Assembly (NCBI RefSeq): GCF_947036865.1
Contig: NZ_CAMQSF010000005.1
Coordinates: forward strand, 1-64,000
Length of the DNA stretch: 64,000 nucleotides
Direction of reading: 5' to 3'
Source of the DNA: an uncultured Caulobacter sp.
GTDB taxonomy: Bacteria; Pseudomonadota; Alphaproteobacteria; Caulobacterales; Caulobacteraceae
The notes under the pieces were generated by a model. That model saw only the letters and a list, made by a program, of their open reading frames with translations, ran no database searches and was not told the origin of the DNA. Made by a program: the position numbers and the translations under genes. Of the stretch, positions 53,963 through 61,875 are shown in pieces. The first letter of the stretch is position 1. Every line of letters begins with the position of its first letter.

Positions 53963-54033
53963 GACGTGATCTGGGTTGCGGCCGGCGCGCTACGGGGTAG
54001 CTTAGGCGCGATGATCGGACGTCGGCGGGGGCG

Positions 54034-55314
54034 ATGACGGCAAGAGCGGAAGTGGCGGCGGCCGAACAGGCGAGTCCGCCGGTCGGAGCGCCATCGGCGC
54101 ATCCCTGGATTTTTCTCGCCCTGATGACGCCCTTCGGCGTCTCCAACGGCTATTCGACCGTGACGCTGGCCTTTCTCCTGGGACGGGCGGGCGTCAGCGC
54201 GGTCCACGTCACGGCGATCATGGCCATGTGGCTGTGGGTTCAGACCTGGAAACTGGCCTGGGCGCCGGTGATCGACACGGTCGGCGACCCGCGGCGCTGG
54301 TACGGGCTGGGCGCGCTGCTGGTCGGCCTCTCGGTGATCGCGATGAGTCTGGTCCACCCAAGCCCGGGGGCCGTCCCGCTGCTGACCGGCCTGGTCGCGT
54401 TGTCCAGCGCGGCGGCGACCCTGGCGGGCATGACCACGGACGTCTTCCTGACCCATCTCGCGCCGCCCCAGATGCGCGGCCGGGCCAGCGGCTGGGCCCA
54501 GGCGGGCAATCTCGGCGGCTCGGGCGTGGGCGGCGGTCTGGCGCTGTTTCTCGTCCAGCACGTGGGTCCGCCCGCCGTTTCGGCGCTGGCGCTCGCGGCG
54601 ATCTGCCTGGCGTGCGCCCTTCTCGCCTGGCGGCTCCCCGCCCTGCCGCGCGCCCACCAAGCCCTGCGCTATGTGAGTCGGCTGCGCGCCGTGGTCGTCG
54701 ACGTCTGGGCGGTGGCCCGCTCGCGCACCGGCTATCTCGCCCTGGTCACCATGTTGCTGCCGATCGCCTCGGGCGCGGCGCCCTGGGCGGTGATCGCCGG
54801 CGAGTGGCGGGCCGGCGCCGATTTGGTCGCCCTGAGCAGCGGTCTGCTGGGCGGCGTCTGCAGCGCGGTCGGGTCGCTGCTGGGCGGGCGTCTATGCGAT
54901 CGGCTCATGCCCAGGAGCGCCTACGCTCTCTTCGGCCTCTGCAGCGGCGTGATCGCGGCGGTCATGGCGTTCGCGCCGCGCACGCCGACAGTGTTCGTGG
55001 TCTTCACCCTGGCCTACGCCGTGATGATCGGGGGCGGCTACGCGGCCTATTCCGCGACGGTGTTGGAGGCGATCGGCCGGCGCTCGGCCGCCACCAATTT
55101 CAACCTGATGGCGGCGATCTCGAACGCGCCGATCGCCTTGATGACCAGCTTCGACGGCTGGATGCACGATCGCGCCGGGACCCGCGCCATGCTGTTCGGC
55201 GAGCTGTGGGTGCAGGCGCTGGCGGTCCTGTTCATCGCGGGCCTGGCCTTCGCGACCGCGCCCAGACAGTCGCGCGGCGGGGAGATCCGGGCCGTCGACC
55301 CGGTCAGGCCCTAG
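54034..55314 (+). CDS. MFS transporter
   Basis: A 426-residue inner-membrane protein with about 12 hydrophobic segments. It has the PWIFLALMTPFGVSNGYSTVTLAFLLGRAGVSA start, GRASGWAQAGNLGGSGVGGGLAL and GGRLCDRLMPRS, typical of major facilitator AmpG-like permeases (AmpG carries muropeptides). Resemblance to AmpG is only in layout and is not certain. Overlaps the remnant at 55304 by 11 bases, convergent. Confidence 0.85.
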   Translation: MTARAEVAAAEQASPPVGAPSAHPWIFLALMTPFGVSNGYSTVTLAFLLGRAGVSAVHVTAIMAMWLWVQTWKLAWAPVIDTVGDPRRWYGLGALLVGLSVIAMSLVHPSPGAVPLLTGLVALSSAAATLAGMTTDVFLTHLAPPQMRGRASGWAQAGNLGGSGVGGGLALFLVQHVGPPAVSALALAAICLACALLAWRLPALPRAHQALRYVSRLRAVVVDVWAVARSRTGYLALVTMLLPIASGAAPWAVIAGEWRAGADLVALSSGLLGGVCSAVGSLLGGRLCDRLMPRSAYALFGLCSGVIAAVMAFAPRTPTVFVVFTLAYAVMIGGGYAAYSATVLEAIGRRSAATNFNLMAAISNAPIALMTSFDGWMHDRAGTRAMLFGELWVQALAVLFIAGLAFATAPRQSRGGEIRAVDPVRP

Positions 55315-55776
55315 CGTCGGCCGCCTCCTCGCGGGCGGCTTTCTTGACCTCGCGGGCGGCGTCCAGGTTCATGGCGGCGATGCACGGGCCCACCACGAGG
55401 TCGGGCCAGATCGAGCGGGTCGGGATGGTCAGAAGCCCCGCGGCGATGATGCCGATATTGGCGATGGCGTCGTTGCGGGCCGAAAGGAAGGCCGCCTTCG
55501 ACAGGCTGCCGGCCGCGGCGCGGTGGCGCGCGAGAGCGAAGGCGCAGAACAGGTTGACGGCCAGGGCGACGCCGACCATGGCCCGCCGCGCGGCGCTCCA
55601 GTTCAGCGCGGCGAGGATCAGGAAATTGACGGCGGCGTCCTCGAAGAAGTCGGCGCTGTCGGCCAGCAGCGAAACCGAGCCTATGCGCAGGGCCACCGCC
55701 AGCTCGACCGCCAAATAGGCGAGGTTCGAATAGCGGCCAGGCGGACGGCGGCGCGGAAGTTACGGGCGAGGGTCAC
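55304..55776 (-). pseudogene. Decayed small CDF-type cation transporter
   Basis: The main frame (TTG 55714 to 55304) encodes LAVELAVALRIGSVSLLADSADFFEDAAVNFLILAAL..., the first helices and metal-site Asp of a cation diffusion facilitator, then SLSKAAFLSARNDAIANIGIIAAGLL and PDLVVGPCIAAMNLDAAREV. The beginning VTLARNFRAAVRLAA is found only in another frame (GTG at 55776), so a frameshift lies near 55725-55740. Compared with my recollection of the roughly 200-residue family, the middle also lacks about 40 residues after MVGVALAV. Two independent lesions suggest a pseudogene rather than sequencing error. Confidence 0.6.
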
Positions 55777-55802
55777 GGCCGACCGGTAGCTCCGGAGTCC
55801 GA

Positions 55803-55840
55803 CAAAAGAACGGCCGCCTTCCAGGAGATGAAGGCGGCCG
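55803..55840 (-). terminator. Intrinsic terminator after the amine oxidase operon
   Basis: On the minus strand CGGCCGCCTTC...GAAGGCGGCCG forms a 10-11-pair stem with an eight-base loop followed by TTCTTTTG. It ends transcription of the RidA/cytochrome/amine oxidase operon 119 bases after the RidA stop. Confidence 0.75.
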
Positions 55841-55958
55841 AGTCATCGGGAGGAAACGCCCGAAAGGGCTAAGCTGGATATAGCGCGCCGCGCCGGGTTA
55901 GACAACGTTGTCAGGGCGCGTTTTCATCACGCCCTGAAATGCGCGGCGCTGGCGACGG

Positions 55959-56444
55959 CTACTTCTTCTTGACCGCCTGAACCTCGATTTCGACCAGCAT
56001 CCCCGGCTGCACCAGCGACACGACCTGGCTGGTGATGCGGGCGGGCTTGTTGGGCTGTTCGGCCGTGCCGAAGAAGGTCTTGTAGGCCTCCATCATGCCG
56101 GCGAAGTCCATCTTGCCGTCCTTGGCCGGGTCGCCGACCAGCAGAACGCGCATCATCACGACGTCGGCCATGGTCGCGCCCTGGGTCTTCAGGGTCTCCT
56201 GGATGCGGCTGAGGACGCTCAAGGTCTGGACCTTGGTGTCGCCGCCGAACATGGCCGGGCCGGTGGCGTCCTTGTTGACCACCGCCGGCGTCAGACCGCT
56301 GACATAGATGGTCTCGTAGCCGGCCGGCACGGTGACGACGCTGGCGATGGCGGCCTTGGGATCGCCGCCGCGGACGATGTCCTGGGCGTGGGCGGCGCCG
56401 GCGAGGGCGCAGAGGCCGGCGGCGAGGGCGACGAGGCGTTTCAT
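55959..56444 (-). CDS. Exported RidA/YjgF-family protein
   Basis: A 161-residue RidA-fold protein. RidA enzymes hydrolyse reactive imines and enamines. Signal peptide MKRLVALAAGLCALAGAAHAQ; the RidA part has YVSGLTPAVV, QTLSVLSRIQETLKTQGATMADVVMMRVLLVGD and KPARITSQVVSLVQPGMLVEIEVQAVKK, where the Arg before the S-V-V stretch is the usual carboxylate-binding residue. Most RidA proteins are cytoplasmic, so an exported copy is notable. It is the last gene of an operon with a cytochrome c and a flavin amine oxidase. Confidence 0.88.
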   Translation of the reverse strand: MKRLVALAAGLCALAGAAHAQDIVRGGDPKAAIASVVTVPAGYETIYVSGLTPAVVNKDATGPAMFGGDTKVQTLSVLSRIQETLKTQGATMADVVMMRVLLVGDPAKDGKMDFAGMMEAYKTFFGTAEQPNKPARITSQVVSLVQPGMLVEIEVQAVKKK

Positions 56445-56471
56445 GATCTTCTCCCCTTGGATGTGAGCGAT

Positions 56472-56864
56472 TTAGTGAGCTTGCAGGCCGCGGCCCTTGG
56501 CGACGGCCTTGGCGGCGGCGCGGGCGGCGGCGACGTCGGCGGGTTTGACGGCCGCGGCCTTGTTGCCCCACGACGAGCGGACATAGGTCAGGATGGCCGA
56601 CAGATCGGCGTCCGACAGGTCGTCCTTGAACGATGGCATGCCGGCGCGACCGTTCAGCACGGTGGTCATCACGATCTTCGGATCGCCTTGCACGAAGGCC
56701 GAGCCGGCCAGGGCCGGGAAGGCGCCGGGCACCCCCTTGCCGGTCGGCTGGTGACAGGCCGAGCAATTGTCCAGGAACAGCGACTTGCCGTCGGCGAAGG
56801 CGATCGCGGGTGTCAAGGCGGCCATGACGAGGGCCAGGCCGGCGACACGGTGAGCGAAGATCAT
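56472..56864 (-). CDS. Periplasmic c-type cytochrome
   Basis: A 130-residue monohaem cytochrome c. Signal peptide MIFAHRVAGLALVMAALTPAIAFA is followed by SLFLDNCSACHQPTGKGVPGAFPALAGSAFVQGDP with haem-binding CSACH; the axial Met is in NGRAGMPSFKDDLSDADLSAILTYVRSSW. It acts as an electron carrier, probably for the adjacent amine oxidase. The start at 56864 is chosen from the signal peptide and GGGGAAA ribosome site; the longer frame to 57323 lies within the oxidase gene. Confidence 0.92.
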   Translation of the reverse strand: MIFAHRVAGLALVMAALTPAIAFADGKSLFLDNCSACHQPTGKGVPGAFPALAGSAFVQGDPKIVMTTVLNGRAGMPSFKDDLSDADLSAILTYVRSSWGNKAAAVKPADVAAARAAAKAVAKGRGLQAH

Positions 56865-56889
56865 GAATTTCCCCGAGGTTTTTCTTGTC

Positions 56890-58491
56890 TTAGGCTTTCG
56901 AGACGCGGGCGTGGATCTTGCCGATCTGCTGCCAGGCCGACTCGATCGCCCCCGCCTGCCAGCCGCCCAGATAGGAAAGATGTTCGCCGGCCAGGTACAG
57001 CCGGCCGTCCGGCTCGCAGAGGATGGGATAGCTGTCCTTACGGCCGGTCTCGCCCCATTCGGCCCAGCCGCCCAGATTGTACTCGGCCAGGTGCCAGCTG
57101 AACGAGAAGGCCTTCTCGAAATTGTCGGCGTATTCGGGGAAGACCTTCTGGCCCGCGGCGACGGCGAAGGCGGCGCGCTCGGCGGGGGTCTTGGCGCTGA
57201 TCTTGGCGGCCTCGCCCCCGAACGCGTAGTAGCCCAGCAGCACGCCCTTCTCGCCCTGCCAGCCCGTGGACGGCAGCGAGATCGAGTTGATCCCGGCCAG
57301 GTCCGTATAGATGTGGCCGCCATAGATGTGGTGCTTCTCTTCCCAGAAGCGGGTCTTCATCTGCAGGCCGATCTTGTTGACCGGGGCGTAGGCCACGCCG
57401 CTCATCGCCGCCTTGAACGGGGCCGAGGCGTCGAGGTCGATCTGCTTCAGGACGCTCAAGGGAATGGTGCACAGGCAGTAGTCGGCGGTGACCTCGCCCG
57501 GCTTGCCGTCGGCGTCCTTGAACGCGACGGTGACCCCGGACGGCGACTGCTTGATCTTCTGAACGACCGCGCCGTAGCGGATCATCGGGCCGACCCGCTT
57601 TTCGAAGGCCTTGGCGATCTGGTCCATGCCGCCGGCCGGCTGCAGCATGGTGCGCTGCTGCTCGTAGCCGGTGACCGAGCTCAGGACCTTCCACGCGCCG
57701 CTGTCGAGGACGTCCTTGAAGGCGTAGGGCGGCAGCTCCTTGCCGGGGCCTGGATTGACGCCCGCGCCCGGATTCACCGAGAAGCCGCGCCCCTCGGTGC
57801 CCTTGTAGGCCAGGTCCTTGGACAGCCGGCCCTCGTTGACGAGGTAGGCGATGAACTTCTCGCGATCGAGGCCGGTCAGCGGCGCGTCGAGCGCGCCGGC
57901 GCTGGCGGCCTTGGCGACCAGCTCGGCGGTGTAGCCGCGGATGTCGGCCGCGATCTCGCCCTTGCGGACCGGCTTGCCCGCCAGCGGTCCCGCGCCCTTC
58001 TCGAAATAGACATAGGCCGCGTCATTGTCGTTGACGAAGCTCTCCAGCGGCACGCCGAAGGCCTTGGTGTAGTGCAGGGTCGAGCGGTGGTGATAGGGGA
58101 TCCGCCAAGGGCCGACATTGATGTAGAGCCCGTCGTCGAAGTCGCAGGTCTGTTCGTGGCCGATCAGGTCGGTGTGCTTGAAGCCCTTGCGCGCGGTCTG
58201 GCACCGGCCGCCGGCGAACGCGCGGGCCTCCAGGACCTGGACCTGATAGCCCGCCTTGCTAAGTTCGTAGGCGGCGGTCATGCCCGCCAGGCCCGCGCCC
58301 AGGATGACGATCTTGGTGTTCTTGGCCCCGCCGGTCAGTTCCGGCGGCCGCTCGGTCGCCGACGCGATGCCGTAGCCCAGCGCCTCCATGCCGGACAGGA
58401 CCAGGGACATGCCCCCCACCGACGCCAGGCTTTCGAAGAACCTGCGGCGTGTCAGTACGCCCCCCGCCGCAGACGCGTCCAATCCGCTCAT
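56890..58491 (-). CDS. Tat-exported flavin amine oxidase
   Basis: A 533-residue flavoprotein of the monoamine oxidase family. A twin-arginine signal (LTRRRFFESLASVGG, residues 13-27) precedes the FAD domain with KIVILGAGLAGMTAAYELSKAG (GxGxxG) and LEARAFAGGRC. The C-terminal FAD-contact part is PDGRLYLAGEHLSYLGGWQAGAIESAW. The mature enzyme should fold with FAD in the cytoplasm and be exported to the periplasm. Genes for a cytochrome c and an exported RidA follow on the same strand with short gaps (25 and 27 bases). Confidence 0.92.
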   Translation of the reverse strand: MSGLDASAAGGVLTRRRFFESLASVGGMSLVLSGMEALGYGIASATERPPELTGGAKNTKIVILGAGLAGMTAAYELSKAGYQVQVLEARAFAGGRCQTARKGFKHTDLIGHEQTCDFDDGLYINVGPWRIPYHHRSTLHYTKAFGVPLESFVNDNDAAYVYFEKGAGPLAGKPVRKGEIAADIRGYTAELVAKAASAGALDAPLTGLDREKFIAYLVNEGRLSKDLAYKGTEGRGFSVNPGAGVNPGPGKELPPYAFKDVLDSGAWKVLSSVTGYEQQRTMLQPAGGMDQIAKAFEKRVGPMIRYGAVVQKIKQSPSGVTVAFKDADGKPGEVTADYCLCTIPLSVLKQIDLDASAPFKAAMSGVAYAPVNKIGLQMKTRFWEEKHHIYGGHIYTDLAGINSISLPSTGWQGEKGVLLGYYAFGGEAAKISAKTPAERAAFAVAAGQKVFPEYADNFEKAFSFSWHLAEYNLGGWAEWGETGRKDSYPILCEPDGRLYLAGEHLSYLGGWQAGAIESAWQQIGKIHARVSKA

Positions 58492-58750
58492 CTTATCCCC
58501 GCATGTTTGTCGCCCGGCCCGCGCCGTCGACGGCCCCGACGCGGCCTCGTCGCGCCAGACCTCGTCATCTCGAAACCGGAGCCTTCGCGGCGCAATGCAT
58601 TTCCGGTTCGTCCCGGTCCTGACATGTTAGACGCCTGGCCATTGGGCGCCGCGAGCGGGCATTGTGCGATCGCTGGGCGGGGGCGGGCGATCGGCGGTGA
58701 CGGCGCGAAATCGCCTTTCGCGCGCGCGTCGGGATGAGGAAGGAGCAGGC

Positions 58751-59290
58751 ATGACCCAATCGAACCTTCGCCTGCGCCTGGCGCGGCCCGAGGACATGTC
58801 CGTCCTGTCGGTCCTGATGGATCGCGCGATCGACGAGCTTCTGCGGGACTTCCTGCCGCCCGAGGGCGTCGCGGCCTCGCACGAGGTCATGGGGCTGGAC
58901 ACCCAGCTGATCGCGGACGGCACCTATTTCGTCGTCGAGGACGCGGGCGAGATCGCCGGCTGCGGCGGCTGGAGCCGGCGCGCCACCCTGTTCGGCGGCG
59001 ATCACTCGGCGGGCCGCGACGCGGCGCTGCTGGATCCGAGGATCGACGCGGCGCGGGTGCGGGCGATGTACACGCACCCCGAGCATACGCGCAAAGGCGT
59101 CGGCAGACTGATTCTGAACGCCTGCGAGGACGCGGCTCGGGCGGAGGGTTTCGCGCGGGTGGAGATGGCCGCGACCATGGGCGGCGCACCCCTCTATCGC
59201 GCCTGCGGCTATCACGACATCGAACCTTTCGAGGCGGCGACGTCGACCGGCTATAGGGTGCCCCTGATCCGGATGGGCAAGGCGCTCTGA
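58751..59290 (+). CDS. GNAT-family N-acetyltransferase
   Basis: A 179-residue GNAT enzyme. Acetyl-CoA binding segment VRAMYTHPEHTRKGVGRLILNACEDAARAEGF contains the R/Q-x-x-G-x-G/A type loop (RKGVGR). The C-terminus is MAATMGGAPLYRACGYHDIE. AGGAG precedes the ATG at 58751. Substrate unknown. The 259-base divergent gap upstream (58492-58750) has no further gene; promoters for it and for the amine oxidase must lie there. Confidence 0.88.
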   Translation: MTQSNLRLRLARPEDMSVLSVLMDRAIDELLRDFLPPEGVAASHEVMGLDTQLIADGTYFVVEDAGEIAGCGGWSRRATLFGGDHSAGRDAALLDPRIDAARVRAMYTHPEHTRKGVGRLILNACEDAARAEGFARVEMAATMGGAPLYRACGYHDIEPFEAATSTGYRVPLIRMGKAL

Positions 59291-59302
59291 CCGCCAAGCG
59301 AA

Positions 59303-59328
59303 AGGGGCGGACCTTTCGATCCGCCCCT
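59303..59328. terminator. Hairpin between convergent GNAT and TonB-receptor genes
   Basis: AGGGGCGGA at 59303-59311 and TCCGCCCCT at 59320-59328 form a nine-pair stem, the only clear signal between the two convergent stops. T-tracts are short on both sides, so termination is likely but weak. Confidence 0.6.
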
Positions 59329-59352
59329 CGACTCTTCAGCGCTGTCTTCGCC

Positions 59353-61875
59353 TCAGAAGGCGAAGGTCAGTCGGCCGTAGTAGTAGCCGCCGTTGATGCC
59401 GTAGGGCGAGAACGACGGGTACTGGGTCACGCAGCCGCTGCCGGAGGCGACGCAGGCGGCCTGGAACGCGGCCGAGAACTTGTCCGGATACTTGTTGAAC
59501 AGGTTGTTGGCCCCGATCGCGGCGGTGACGCCCATCGGGAACTTGTAGGAGAGCTCGGCGTCGGTGATCGCCGTGGCGCCGGCCACGGTGTTCAGCAGCG
59601 GGCCGGTGCCCGGATCGCTGAGCGCCTCGGCCTTGCCGTAGAAGGTCTCCGTCAGGCTGAGCGAGACCTTGCCGTAGGTGTAGAGCCCGTTGAGGCCGAC
59701 CTTGTACTTCGGCGAGCCCTTCTCGAGCAGCGAAGCGGCGTTGCCGGCGAACAGCAACTGCCCCGTCGGGAAGGCGGTGCTGGGCGTCGCCAGCGCGGCG
59801 GGCGGCGCCTTGACCTTGGTGATCTTGGTCTGGCTGAAGTTGCCGCTCAGCGTCCAGTCGATGCGGCCATAGTCGCCCAGGTCGGTCGGATAGGCGATCA
59901 CGACGTCCAGGCCGCGGGTGCGGGTGTCCAGGCCGTTCGAGAAGATGTTGATGCCGGTGCTGGTCACCGTGCTGTCCAGCACGTTGCCGTTGGCGGCGAT
60001 GGCGGCGTTGACATTGGCGTTGGTGAGCGCGCCGTTGCGGAAGCCGTAGACCGAGCTGGAGCCGAAGATCCGGTCCTTCAGGGTGATCTGATAGGCGTCG
60101 ATCGTCGCCGTCATCTTCGGGATCGGGTGCGCGACCAGACCGACGCTGTAGTTGGTCGATTTCTCGGGCTTCAGCTTGTCGATGCCCAGCAGGCGCGCGG
60201 CGTTCGAGTTCGGCGCCAGCTGCACGAAGGCGCTGGTCGGCGAGACGTTGGTGGCCGAGTAGAACGATTCCGCCAGGGTCGGGGCGCGGAAGCCGGTCGA
60301 GATCGTGCCGCGCAGGGCGACCATCTCGTTGAAGTCATAGCGGCTGGTCAGCTTGGCGACCGTGGTGTCGCCGAAGTCGCTGAACTTCTCGTAGCGGACC
60401 GCGGCGTCGATCTTCCACGCCTCGACCGGCGTGGCGGCGACGTCGCCGTACACGGCCCAGCTGGTCCGCGCGTGGCCGCCGGCGTCGGTCTTGGAGAAGC
60501 CCGGATAGGACTGCGACCCTTCCTTGTAGGTCGAGGCCGCGTCGCCCTGACCGATGCGATAGGTGTCGCGGCGCTGCTCGTAGCCGACCGCGACGTCCAG
60601 CGGGGCCGAGAAGCCGACATCGAAGCCGCGCCGCAGATCGATGTTGTTGGTCCACTGGGTGGTCCGCCAGCTGCCGGCGTGGAACGAGGTCGGGGTGAAG
60701 CCCTTGGTCGTCAGGGTCGAGGTGTCGGCGTACAGGCTGGCGTTGGCCGAATTCTCGACGCGGACCTCGATGTCGTCCTTGCCGTAGGTCGACGAGACGT
60801 CCAGGTCCCAGCCGGCCAGCTTGCCCGACACGCCCAGGGTCAGGGCGTAATCGGTCTCGATGATCCGCTCGCGGGGCGAGAAGCCCAGCGGGAAGGGCCG
60901 ATCGGCGGCGCCCTGCTTGCCTTGGATGCGGGTGAAGCGACGATAGTTCTCGTAGGCCGAGGCGTCCTTGTGGCCCAGGGTGCCGAACGAATAGAGCTCG
61001 AAGTCGGGCGCGAGCTCCACGCCGCCGTTGAACGCGAGGTTGTTCAGGCGATACTCGGCGTCGCCGGAGATCAGGTTCAGATTCGGATAGCCGGGGATCT
61101 GGCTCTCGACAGCGTTGTTGGCGGCCGAATAGCTGGGGCTCGCCGGATTGAAGACGCGCTGGTCGGGCAGGCCGCGGTTGGAGAAGCCGTGATATTTGCT
61201 TTCCACCGTCAGGTTCAGATAGCTCTTTTCGGTCGGGGCCAGGCCAAGATTGACGGAGCCGCCGGCGGTCTTGCCGCCGCCGTCGATATACTCGCCGCCC
61301 GTCGCCGAGATCGAGCCGCCCGACGTATTCTTCTTCAGGATGATGTTGACGACGCCGGCGATAGCGTCGGTGCCGTACTGGGCGGCGGCGCCGTCGGTCA
61401 GCACTTCGATGCGGCCGATGCCGGCCATCGGGATGAAGCCGAGGTCGGCGGCGGCGGCGCCCTGGTAGACGCCGGACAGAACGGCGAGGTTGCCGGTGGT
61501 GTGGCGGCGCTTGCCGTTGACCAGCACCAGGGCCTGGTTGGGCGACAGACCGCGCAGGCGGGCCGAAAGGGTCAGGTTGGCGGTGTCGCCGCCGAAGGCC
61601 TGGGCGTTGAACGAGGGCACCAGGTTCGCGAGGCCGAGGCGCAGATCCACCGCGCCGGTGCGCTCGAGCGTGCTGGTGTCGACCACTTGAACGGGAGCGG
61701 GGCTGTCGATGACACGCAGGCCCGTCTGGCGCGTGCCCGTGACAATGACGGTGTCGACCTCGGTCTTGTCGGACGGCGTCGCGGGCGTCGCCGCGAAGCT
61801 TGAAGTTGAGTATCCGAAAGTAACGGATAGTACGGAAATACCCGCCAACAGGGCGGGTTTGAAACGTCGAGTCAT
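59353..61875 (-). CDS. TonB-dependent outer-membrane receptor
   Basis: An 840-residue outer-membrane receptor. Signal peptide (MTRRFKPALLAGISVLSVTF... ending SSFA) is followed by an early DTVIVTGTRQTGLRVIDSPAPVQVVDTSTL (TonB box region and start of plug), the plug with PNQALVLVNGKRRHTTG and IPMAGIGRIEVLTDGAAAQYGTDAIAGVVNIILKK, and a long beta barrel ending in a Phe (GGYYYGRLTFAF). Such receptors import siderophores, cobalamin or sugars using TonB energy; Caulobacter has dozens. Substrate is not readable. No Fur-type box was recognised upstream. Confidence 0.95.
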   Translation of the reverse strand: MTRRFKPALLAGISVLSVTFGYSTSSFAATPATPSDKTEVDTVIVTGTRQTGLRVIDSPAPVQVVDTSTLERTGAVDLRLGLANLVPSFNAQAFGGDTANLTLSARLRGLSPNQALVLVNGKRRHTTGNLAVLSGVYQGAAAADLGFIPMAGIGRIEVLTDGAAAQYGTDAIAGVVNIILKKNTSGGSISATGGEYIDGGGKTAGGSVNLGLAPTEKSYLNLTVESKYHGFSNRGLPDQRVFNPASPSYSAANNAVESQIPGYPNLNLISGDAEYRLNNLAFNGGVELAPDFELYSFGTLGHKDASAYENYRRFTRIQGKQGAADRPFPLGFSPRERIIETDYALTLGVSGKLAGWDLDVSSTYGKDDIEVRVENSANASLYADTSTLTTKGFTPTSFHAGSWRTTQWTNNIDLRRGFDVGFSAPLDVAVGYEQRRDTYRIGQGDAASTYKEGSQSYPGFSKTDAGGHARTSWAVYGDVAATPVEAWKIDAAVRYEKFSDFGDTTVAKLTSRYDFNEMVALRGTISTGFRAPTLAESFYSATNVSPTSAFVQLAPNSNAARLLGIDKLKPEKSTNYSVGLVAHPIPKMTATIDAYQITLKDRIFGSSSVYGFRNGALTNANVNAAIAANGNVLDSTVTSTGINIFSNGLDTRTRGLDVVIAYPTDLGDYGRIDWTLSGNFSQTKITKVKAPPAALATPSTAFPTGQLLFAGNAASLLEKGSPKYKVGLNGLYTYGKVSLSLTETFYGKAEALSDPGTGPLLNTVAGATAITDAELSYKFPMGVTAAIGANNLFNKYPDKFSAAFQAACVASGSGCVTQYPSFSPYGINGGYYYGRLTFAF

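What the first reader, a model, noticed from the sequence alone, without database searches (positions are those of the whole stretch)
55959..58491. Exported amine oxidase, cytochrome c and RidA in one operon
Seen in sequence: a Tat-signal flavin amine oxidase, a Sec-signal monohaem cytochrome c and a Sec-signal RidA-family protein lie on one strand with gaps of about 25 bases and a shared terminator. Known: flavin amine oxidases make imines, and RidA proteins hydrolyse imines. Inference: the trio may be a self-contained periplasmic amine-oxidising unit in which electrons leave via cytochrome c instead of making peroxide, and RidA handles the reactive imine product. An exported RidA linked to its imine source is not something I know as a described system.
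Basis: partly seen in the sequence, partly recalled or inferred. Interest (0 to 1): 0.7.

Follow-up and report, generated by a model that had tools for sequence, protein, structure and literature searches.

The report
Exported amino-acid-oxidising gene cluster
Three neighbouring genes in a Caulobacter-type bacterium appear to oxidise L-amino acids outside the cytoplasm, pass the electrons to a cytochrome and clean up the reactive product; the same kind of cluster was described in another bacterium in 2016, but its frequent companionship with an outer-membrane uptake receptor may be new.

Summary
A Tat-signal FAD enzyme, a Sec-signal monohaem cytochrome c and a Sec-signal Rid protein lie on the minus strand, gaps 25 and 27 bases, one terminator-like hairpin. 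The enzyme is L-amino-acid-oxidase type (R. opacus LAAO 305.8 bits), not a generic amine oxidase; the Rid protein is nearest two Rid3 proteins that deaminate imino acids in vitro. Of 80 named relatives, 80 have a Tat motif, 78 an intact cytochrome c gene (77 adjacent), 73 a Rid gene (68 with signal-like start). It is not undescribed: Gluconacetobacter lao-cccA-ridA was published in 2016, with the same partner hypothesis and conservation in Caulobacter crescentus. Added here: in Caulobacteraceae partner genes follow enzyme lineage (one with cytochrome c, one with Rid only); and a TonB-dependent receptor, 59353-61875 here, accompanies Rid-bearing loci (60 of 73 named loci with Rid, 0 of 7 without), suggesting receptor-fed periplasmic amino-acid oxidation. 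Export, electron route, substrate and receptor role are inferred. Interest moderate.

The parts
56890..58491 (-). lao-like gene: Tat-signal FAD L-amino-acid oxidase/dehydrogenase type, 533 aa
   Evidence: Pfam Amino_oxidase 195.6 bits; R. opacus LAAO 2jae 305.8 bits over residues 54-531; R130, Y422, W511 and K373 conserved
58357..58491 (-). Tat signal region (TRRRFF, hydrophobic stretch, ASA), about codons 1-45
   Evidence: read from the translation; RRxF/L-type motif in 80 of 80 named relatives
56472..56864 (-). Sec-signal monohaem class I cytochrome c, 130 aa
   Evidence: Pfam Cytochrome_CBB3 51.8 bits and Cytochrom_C 47.4 bits; 25 bases after the oxidase
56751..56765 (-). haem-binding motif CSACH
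   Evidence: read
55959..56444 (-). Sec-signal Rid protein nearest to Rid3, 161 aa, catalytic-type Arg136
   Evidence: Pfam PF01042 62.5 bits; nearest PDB sequences PFL1385 and PSPTO3006; Arg in 107 of 108 aligned rows, the other a gap in a copy at a contig end
55811..55840 (-). intrinsic-terminator-like hairpin after the trio
   Evidence: 11 pairs, 9 of them GC, T-rich tail
59353..61875 (-). TonB-dependent receptor, same strand, upstream of the trio; proposed fourth member (inference). A divergent GNAT gene (+, ending 59290) lies between
   Evidence: Pfam Plug and TonB_dep_Rec_b-barrel; a related receptor in 60 of 80 named relatives' loci, these 60 among the 73 with Rid

Best explanation
A periplasmic L-amino-acid-oxidising module of the lao-cccA-ridA kind. 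Shown from sequence: three proteins with export-type signals in one close-packed, conserved cluster, and a TonB-dependent receptor that often accompanies the Rid gene. Inferred: the receptor brings an amino acid or amino-acid-containing compound through the outer membrane; the Tat-exported FAD enzyme oxidises the alpha-amino group to an imino acid; the reduced flavin is reoxidised by the neighbouring cytochrome c, which feeds the respiratory chain, so that little hydrogen peroxide is made; the exported Rid3-like protein hydrolyses the imino acid to the 2-oxo acid and ammonia. The products serve as nitrogen and carbon source or, with tryptophan, give indole-3-pyruvate. The enzyme should therefore be an L-amino acid dehydrogenase rather than an oxidase.
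For: LAAO affinity and conserved residues at the recalled LAAO substrate positions. In 80 named loci: Tat motif 80 of 80; intact cytochrome c with CxxCH 78 of 80, 77 within 110 bases of the enzyme, 63 of 78 gaps under 30 bases with 26 overlaps of 1 or 4; Rid 73 of 80 in three arrangements: downstream 62, upstream 8, opposite strand 3. Whole-genome co-occurrence of enzyme and Rid in 80 Caulobacteraceae: both 27, enzyme only 4, Rid only 1, neither 48. Annotated trios on plasmids of Microvirga, Comamonas and Paracoccus, 3 of 5 records opened. Literature: lao cluster and its mutants, ccm phenotype (PMC5053998); Tat plus adjacent cytochrome c predicts dehydrogenase kinetics (PMC12224317); Rid3 imine deaminases (PMC5619798). 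Receptor: in 60 of 73 Rid-bearing named loci against 0 of 7 without Rid; the best receptor hit of the whole genome is the trio-adjacent one in 7 of 12 genomes.
Against: No activity is shown for any of these proteins. The lysine near flavin N5 that is linked to oxygen reactivity is present (K373); by PMC12224317 it is in nearly all dehydrogenases too, so it does not decide. The NicA2-type dehydrogenases studied are only distant relatives. The trio is patchy: 2 of 8 sampled same-genus genomes lack enzyme and Rid alike, and 4 of 190 genomes of the class, own included, have a close enzyme. Exported-type Rid genes are not bound to LAAO: of 32 Rid loci fetched in the family 15 hold no LAAO-type gene, some of them cut by contig ends, and 31 of 55 enzymes have cytochrome c without adjacent Rid. 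In the window the receptor is cut off from the trio by a divergent gene; in 12 of the 60 loci the receptor is only 30-33% identical, in 2 of 12 whole genomes the best receptor hit lies elsewhere and in 3 there is none; of 43 receptor places in the family 17 lie within 5 kb of a Rid hit.
Confidence: 0.62

Rival explanations
1. The enzyme is a true oxygen-using L-amino acid oxidase that makes hydrogen peroxide, as in snake venom and Chlamydomonas LAO1; the cytochrome c serves peroxide removal or is incidental.
For: The closest solved relatives are named L-amino acid oxidases. A related lineage in the same bacterial family keeps Rid but no cytochrome c (Rid beside 10 of 13 enzymes, cytochrome c beside none), so an oxygen-using version may exist.
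Against: In the window's lineage the cytochrome c is next to the enzyme in 46 of 49 tree rows, two of the other three being cut by a contig end. Tat plus adjacent cytochrome c predicted dehydrogenases in PMC12224317. G. diazotrophicus needs cytochrome c maturation for IAA (quoted in PMC5053998).
Confidence: 0.17
2. Its main role is auxin-type signalling: conversion of tryptophan to indole-3-pyruvate and IAA, rather than nutrient scavenging.
For: G. diazotrophicus lao mutants lose IAA and leave tryptophan unused (PMC5053998); Chlamydomonas lao1 likewise (PMC10805672 passages). Some related Rid loci lie near kynureninase-like or tryptophan-halogenase genes.
Against: R. opacus LAAO oxidises 39 of 43 tested L-amino acids (quoted in PMC5053998), so tryptophan may be one substrate among many. 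No IAA gene was looked for here.
Confidence: 0.12
3. The TonB-dependent receptor is an incidental neighbour in receptor-rich genomes and the functional unit is only the trio.
For: Own-genome search gave 70 first-look receptor candidates; in the window a divergent gene separates receptor and trio; the receptor is only 30-33% identical in 12 of 60 loci and not seen in 13 of 73 Rid-bearing loci; 26 of 43 receptor places in the family have no Rid hit within 5 kb.
Against: On the enzyme's strand in 57 of 60 loci; in the other 3 receptor and Rid are both on the other strand. In 31 loci of the Duganella/Massilia group a 52-55% identical receptor lies directly downstream of Rid; in the 4 such genomes searched whole it is the best hit, the second best being 36-40%. 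In one family the receptor goes with Rid rather than with the enzyme: 19 of 32 Rid loci against 4 of 36 enzyme loci without adjacent Rid.
Confidence: 0.3

Closest known systems
lao-cccA-ridA cluster of Gluconacetobacter diazotrophicus (GDI2456-GDI2454; PMC5053998, abstract, passages and first parts of Results and Discussion)
   Same: Same three families side by side; Tat signal on a 533-aa LAAO; the paper states conservation in Caulobacter crescentus and proposes that cytochrome c and RidA assist the LAAO
   Different: Different organism; in the parts that I read, no export signal on RidA and no receptor is mentioned; the GDI proteins were not available to align here
Cytochrome-c-using flavoprotein amine dehydrogenases: NicA2/CycN, Pnao and relatives (PMC9396064 seen in a listing only; PMC12224317 passages)
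   Same: Tat-signal amine-oxidase-fold enzyme with an adjacent Sec-signal cytochrome c
   Different: LAAO lineage rather than NicA2-like; extra Rid; the terms RidA, LAAO and Caulobacter have no hits in PMC12224317
Chlamydomonas LAO1 with LAO2/RidA in the periplasm (PMC10805672 passages)
   Same: Extracytoplasmic LAAO with an RidA partner; tryptophan to indole-3-pyruvate
   Different: Eukaryote; makes peroxide; no cytochrome c partner in the passages seen
Rid3 proteins PFL_1385 and PSPTO_3006 (PMC5619798 passages; PDB 9bkc, 9bka)
   Same: Closest solved relatives of the Rid protein; imine deaminases in vitro
   Different: Not tied to a particular oxidase gene in the passages seen
Rhodococcus opacus L-amino acid oxidase (PDB 2jae)
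   Same: Fold family and recalled substrate residues
   Different: Taken as an oxygen-using oxidase (recalled); its genomic partners were not examined here

Membership tests
lao-cccA-ridA cluster | Tat-signal LAAO, cytochrome c and RidA family gene adjacent on one strand | tested here: met
lao-cccA-ridA cluster | co-transcription and role in tryptophan conversion to indole-3-pyruvate/IAA | not testable with these tools
   needs RT-PCR and mutants; evidence exists for G. diazotrophicus (PMC5053998)
cytochrome-c-using FAO dehydrogenases | Tat signal on the enzyme and neighbouring cytochrome c gene | tested here: met
   (motif-based, no predictor)
cytochrome-c-using FAO dehydrogenases | slow reaction with oxygen, fast with own cytochrome c | not testable with these tools
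   needs stopped-flow kinetics
cytochrome-c-using FAO dehydrogenases | sequence within the NicA2-derived clades of PMC12224317 | tested here: inconclusive
   5ttj (recalled to be NicA2) 33.7 bits against 305.8 for R. opacus LAAO; the paper's tree was not rebuilt
L-amino acid oxidase family | substrate-binding Arg/Tyr/Trp (R84, Y371, W467 of R. opacus LAAO, recalled; chain positions 83, 370, 466, a constant offset of one) | tested here: met
   R130, Y422, W511 in the window; R and W in 99 of 99 rows, Y in 98 of 99 (80 of the rows are close relatives)
Rid3 imine deaminases | catalytic Arg and closest relationship to Rid3 proteins | tested here: met
   no Rid subfamily model was available, so the assignment rests on nearest solved sequences
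Rid3 imine deaminases | imine deaminase activity | not testable with these tools
   needs the semicarbazone assay

The most novel reading that the evidence does not exclude
Exported Rid3-like proteins are the standing partner of a TonB-dependent receptor subfamily in periplasmic amino-acid catabolism, and are joined by different imine sources: LAAO with cytochrome c (here), LAAO without it, or other enzymes such as kynureninase-like ones. The window would then hold a four-part receptor, L-amino acid dehydrogenase, cytochrome c and imine hydrolase module, which bacteria poor in porins use to strip nitrogen and electrons from amino acids before these enter the cytoplasm.
Probability: 0.42. Interest if true: 0.62.

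Novelty: new member of a known kind. Interest (0 to 1): 0.42.

Why it matters
It extends a 2016 transposon finding in one plant endophyte to a conserved module in Caulobacteraceae, Nitrospirillum, the Duganella/Massilia group and some others, with a testable prediction that a branch of so-called L-amino acid oxidases are cytochrome c dehydrogenases that spare the cell peroxide. The receptor link hints at how substrate could reach such an enzyme in Caulobacter, whose genome is reported to lack general diffusion porins and to carry 67 TonB-dependent receptors (PMC4659666 abstract).

Tried and rejected
Considered and rejected: (1) generic amine or nicotine-type oxidase: sequence affinity is to LAAO. 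(2) Chance adjacency: rejected by three gene arrangements, a split copy (G019: enzyme at C1:1385879, cytochrome-Rid pair near C1:2864018) and whole-genome co-occurrence. (3) Using the flavin-proximal lysine to tell oxidase from dehydrogenase: uninformative. (4) Wider operon: GNAT, MFS, CDF-like and FAA-hydrolase neighbours were found in 12, 1, 1 and 7 of 80 loci (flanks of at most 5 kb), so only the receptor was kept. (5) Literature on active-site residues of R. opacus LAAO: no paper found, so those residues are recalled. (6) A first pattern for the Rid arginine (PAR) missed many copies, 52 of 73 matching, because the residue before it varies; replaced by the alignment column. No structure prediction was run, since the match to a solved LAAO already gave the fold.
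Full report
What is there. On the minus strand of the window, in order of transcription: an amine-oxidase-fold gene (58491-56890, 533 aa), a cytochrome c gene (56864-56472, 130 aa) and a Rid gene (56444-55959, 161 aa), with gaps of 25 and 27 bases, followed by a terminator-like hairpin at 55840-55811. The first protein begins with a Tat-type motif (TRRRFF), the other two with Sec-type signals; the cytochrome has one CSACH. The scan found no sigma-70-like promoter in 54000-60000, which says little for such a genome.

What the parts are. The best solved relative of the enzyme is Rhodococcus opacus L-amino acid oxidase 2jae (305.8 bits over residues 54-531; next 110.8 bits, also an L-amino acid oxidase; the entry that I recall to be NicA2, 5ttj, 33.7 bits). 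In an alignment of 99 enzymes the arginine, tyrosine and tryptophan that I recall as substrate residues of the R. opacus enzyme are kept in the window protein (R130, Y422, W511), as is the lysine near flavin N5 (K373) (80 of the 99 rows are the named close relatives). The Rid protein is closest to PFL1385 (114.1 bits) and PSPTO3006 (103.2 bits), two Rid3 proteins; both deaminate imino acids made by L-amino acid oxidase, and iminoarginine, in vitro (PMC5619798, passages). Its catalytic-type arginine is present in 107 of 108 aligned rows; the other row, L012, has a gap and lies at a contig end. The genome's other two PF01042 genes show no signal sequence at their likely starts by eye.

Conservation in named genomes. 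A scan with the enzyme found 345 relatives, of which the best 80 were kept, from Caulobacteraceae, Nitrospirillum/Azospirillum, many Oxalobacteraceae, Pandoraea, Pigmentiphaga, Zobellella and others, MAGs included. Of these 80: Tat motif in 80; an intact cytochrome c gene in 78, each with CxxCH, 77 of them within 110 bases of the enzyme (the rest: L010 with a broken reading frame, L064 cut 94 bases past the enzyme, L080 with a start that could not be placed, gap 280); Rid in 73, downstream in 62, upstream in 8, on the other strand in 3. The seven without Rid are L027, L029, L030, L031, L064, L075, L080; L031, L064 and L080 are short or cut. An N-terminal hydrophobic stretch above my cut-off was found in 76 of 78 cytochromes and 68 of 73 Rid proteins. 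The median gap from enzyme to cytochrome is 13.5 bases, 63 of 78 under 30, with 26 copies at -4 or -1. Plasmid records from Microvirga, Comamonas and Paracoccus carry the annotated trio; a Komagataeibacter plasmid keeps cytochrome c and Rid beside insertion-sequence-type genes without the oxidase (I opened 5 of 21 records matching the Rid protein, the fifth being Sphingomonas).

Among 80 Caulobacteraceae, the enzyme (E<=1e-60, which takes in several sub-lineages) was found in 31 and the Rid protein (E<=1e-15) in 28: both in 27, enzyme only in 4, Rid only in 1, neither in 48 (Fisher p 5e-16, not corrected for kinship). In the genus, 6 of 8 genomes, own included, have both and 2 have neither. 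In the class a close enzyme (E<=1e-120) was found in 4 of 190 genomes, own included: an accessory module. The 55 enzyme places were classified (one search lists 53; one near-duplicate, L142, was merged by my script and is shown, and the window itself makes 55): cytochrome c and Rid 8, cytochrome c only 31, Rid only 10, neither 6. Three of the six (L164, L167, L178) are cut by a contig end on the downstream side. A tree of 63 rows (quick method, labels typed, nine rows from named loci) splits them: 49 rows in a lineage with cytochrome c (46 have it; support 90, under the program's mark of 95) and 13 rows in a lineage with no cytochrome c (support 99), 10 of which have Rid. The split is rooted on one distant outgroup. 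The own genome has a second enzyme of the first lineage with cytochrome c but no Rid (C63:8817-10385). From the Rid side the link is looser: of 32 Rid loci fetched, 17 hold an LAAO-type gene and 15 do not, a few of these being cut by contig ends. So cytochrome c and Rid are separable partners of these enzymes. That fits Rid serving the imine and cytochrome c the electrons (inference).

A fourth gene. A TonB-dependent receptor lies upstream on the same strand in the window (59353-61875), beyond a divergent GNAT gene. In the 80 named loci a receptor similar to it (more than 150 residues aligned) occurs in 60: 48 at 52-90% identity (14 Caulobacteraceae, 34 of the Duganella/Massilia group or unplaced kin among L039-L076) and 12 at 30-33%. 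It is on the enzyme's strand in 57; in L070, L071 and L076 receptor and Rid are both on the other strand. The 60 are all among the 73 with Rid; none of the 7 loci without Rid has a receptor (p 2e-5; three of these seven loci are short, and the loci are related). In whole-genome searches of 12 genomes, the best receptor hit is the one beside the trio in 7 (100, 80, 55, 56, 55, 55, 54% identity; second best 36-42%); in 2 (Nitrospirillum, C. vibrioides DSM 9893) the best hit is elsewhere, and in 3 there is none at E<=1e-60 (positions matched by arithmetic). In the family survey a receptor lies in 19 of 32 Rid loci against 4 of 36 enzyme loci without adjacent Rid (p 3e-5; 18 against 2 if weak matches are dropped, p 7e-6; two loci of the second set overlap or share a contig with loci of the first). 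Seen from the receptor side, 17 of 43 receptor places at E<=1e-170 lie within 5 kb of a Rid hit, and 16 of 33 Rid places within 5 kb of such a receptor. Eight Rid loci with a long receptor match and no LAAO (L121, L126, L127, L128, L130, L131, L135, L136) stand near other genes: kynureninase-like in four (one genus), sulfotransferase-like in four of those scanned, M24 peptidase in one (20 ORFs chosen were scanned). A Sphingomonas plasmid has FAD oxidoreductase, receptor, Rid and tryptophan halogenase in a row.

What is known. Rodrigues et al. 2016 (PMC5053998; abstract, passages, first parts of Results and Discussion read) describe lao-cccA-ridA in G. diazotrophicus: two Tn5 insertions in lao abolish IAA and leave tryptophan unused; all three transcripts fall in the mutant tested; the cluster is said to be conserved in Caulobacter crescentus and Xanthomonas; ccm mutants make 5% of wild-type IAA (quoted there from Lee et al. 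2004); and cytochrome c and RidA are proposed to work with the LAAO. A later paper on the same bacterium reports a fur box upstream of a set of nuo genes and lao (PMC9368920, passages). Niehaus et al. 2015 (PMC4433059, passages) report that RidA, and sometimes Rid3, genes cluster with FAD amine oxidase genes. The 2025 Biochemistry paper (PMC12224317, passages) reports that Tat signal plus operon cytochrome c are good predictors of dehydrogenases; its text has no occurrence of RidA, LAAO or Caulobacter. Chlamydomonas LAO1 works in the periplasm with an RidA partner (PMC10805672, passages). So the trio is a member of a described kind. I found no paper that joins such a cluster to a TonB-dependent receptor in the listings of three searches of the open library; subscription journals are mostly missing from it.

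Verdict. Trio: real, conserved, already described elsewhere, mechanism likely but unproven. The added points are the lineage pattern of partners and the receptor association. Which steps are shown: gene content, order, conservation, motifs. Which are inferred: export, electron route to cytochrome c, L-amino acid substrate, imine hydrolysis in the periplasm, receptor as importer. On checking, the odds of the bold reading were lowered slightly (0.45 to 0.42) because the receptor-side count is 17 of 43.

Noticed in passing
59353-61875 (-): TonB-dependent receptor whose relatives often accompany Rid genes with export signals; proposed as a fourth member of the module.
   Followed up: partly
L152 8811-10403 (G000:C63): Second LAAO-type gene of the same genome, about 44% identical, followed by a cytochrome c gene but no Rid; part of a lineage of such pairs in the family.
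   Followed up: partly
L118, L119, L122, L123, L132, L134, L137, L143, L144, L145: LAAO-type genes 34-39% identical to the window's, directly followed by Rid without a cytochrome c gene nearby; electron acceptor unknown.
   Followed up: partly
L130, L131, L135, L136: Rid and TonB-dependent receptor near a kynureninase-like PLP gene and no LAAO; L131 and L136 also have a TPR-sulfotransferase gene.
   Followed up: no
L192 1-6049: Sphingomonas plasmid with FAD oxidoreductase, TonB-dependent receptor, Rid and tryptophan halogenase genes in a row.
   Followed up: no
L132 5365-5784 (-): The Rid protein here starts with an apparent lipobox (LSGC), so some exported Rid proteins may be lipoproteins.
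   Followed up: no
L190 1266-4426: Komagataeibacter plasmid pGX5: cytochrome c and Rid genes remain beside insertion-sequence-type genes, without the oxidase.
   Followed up: no
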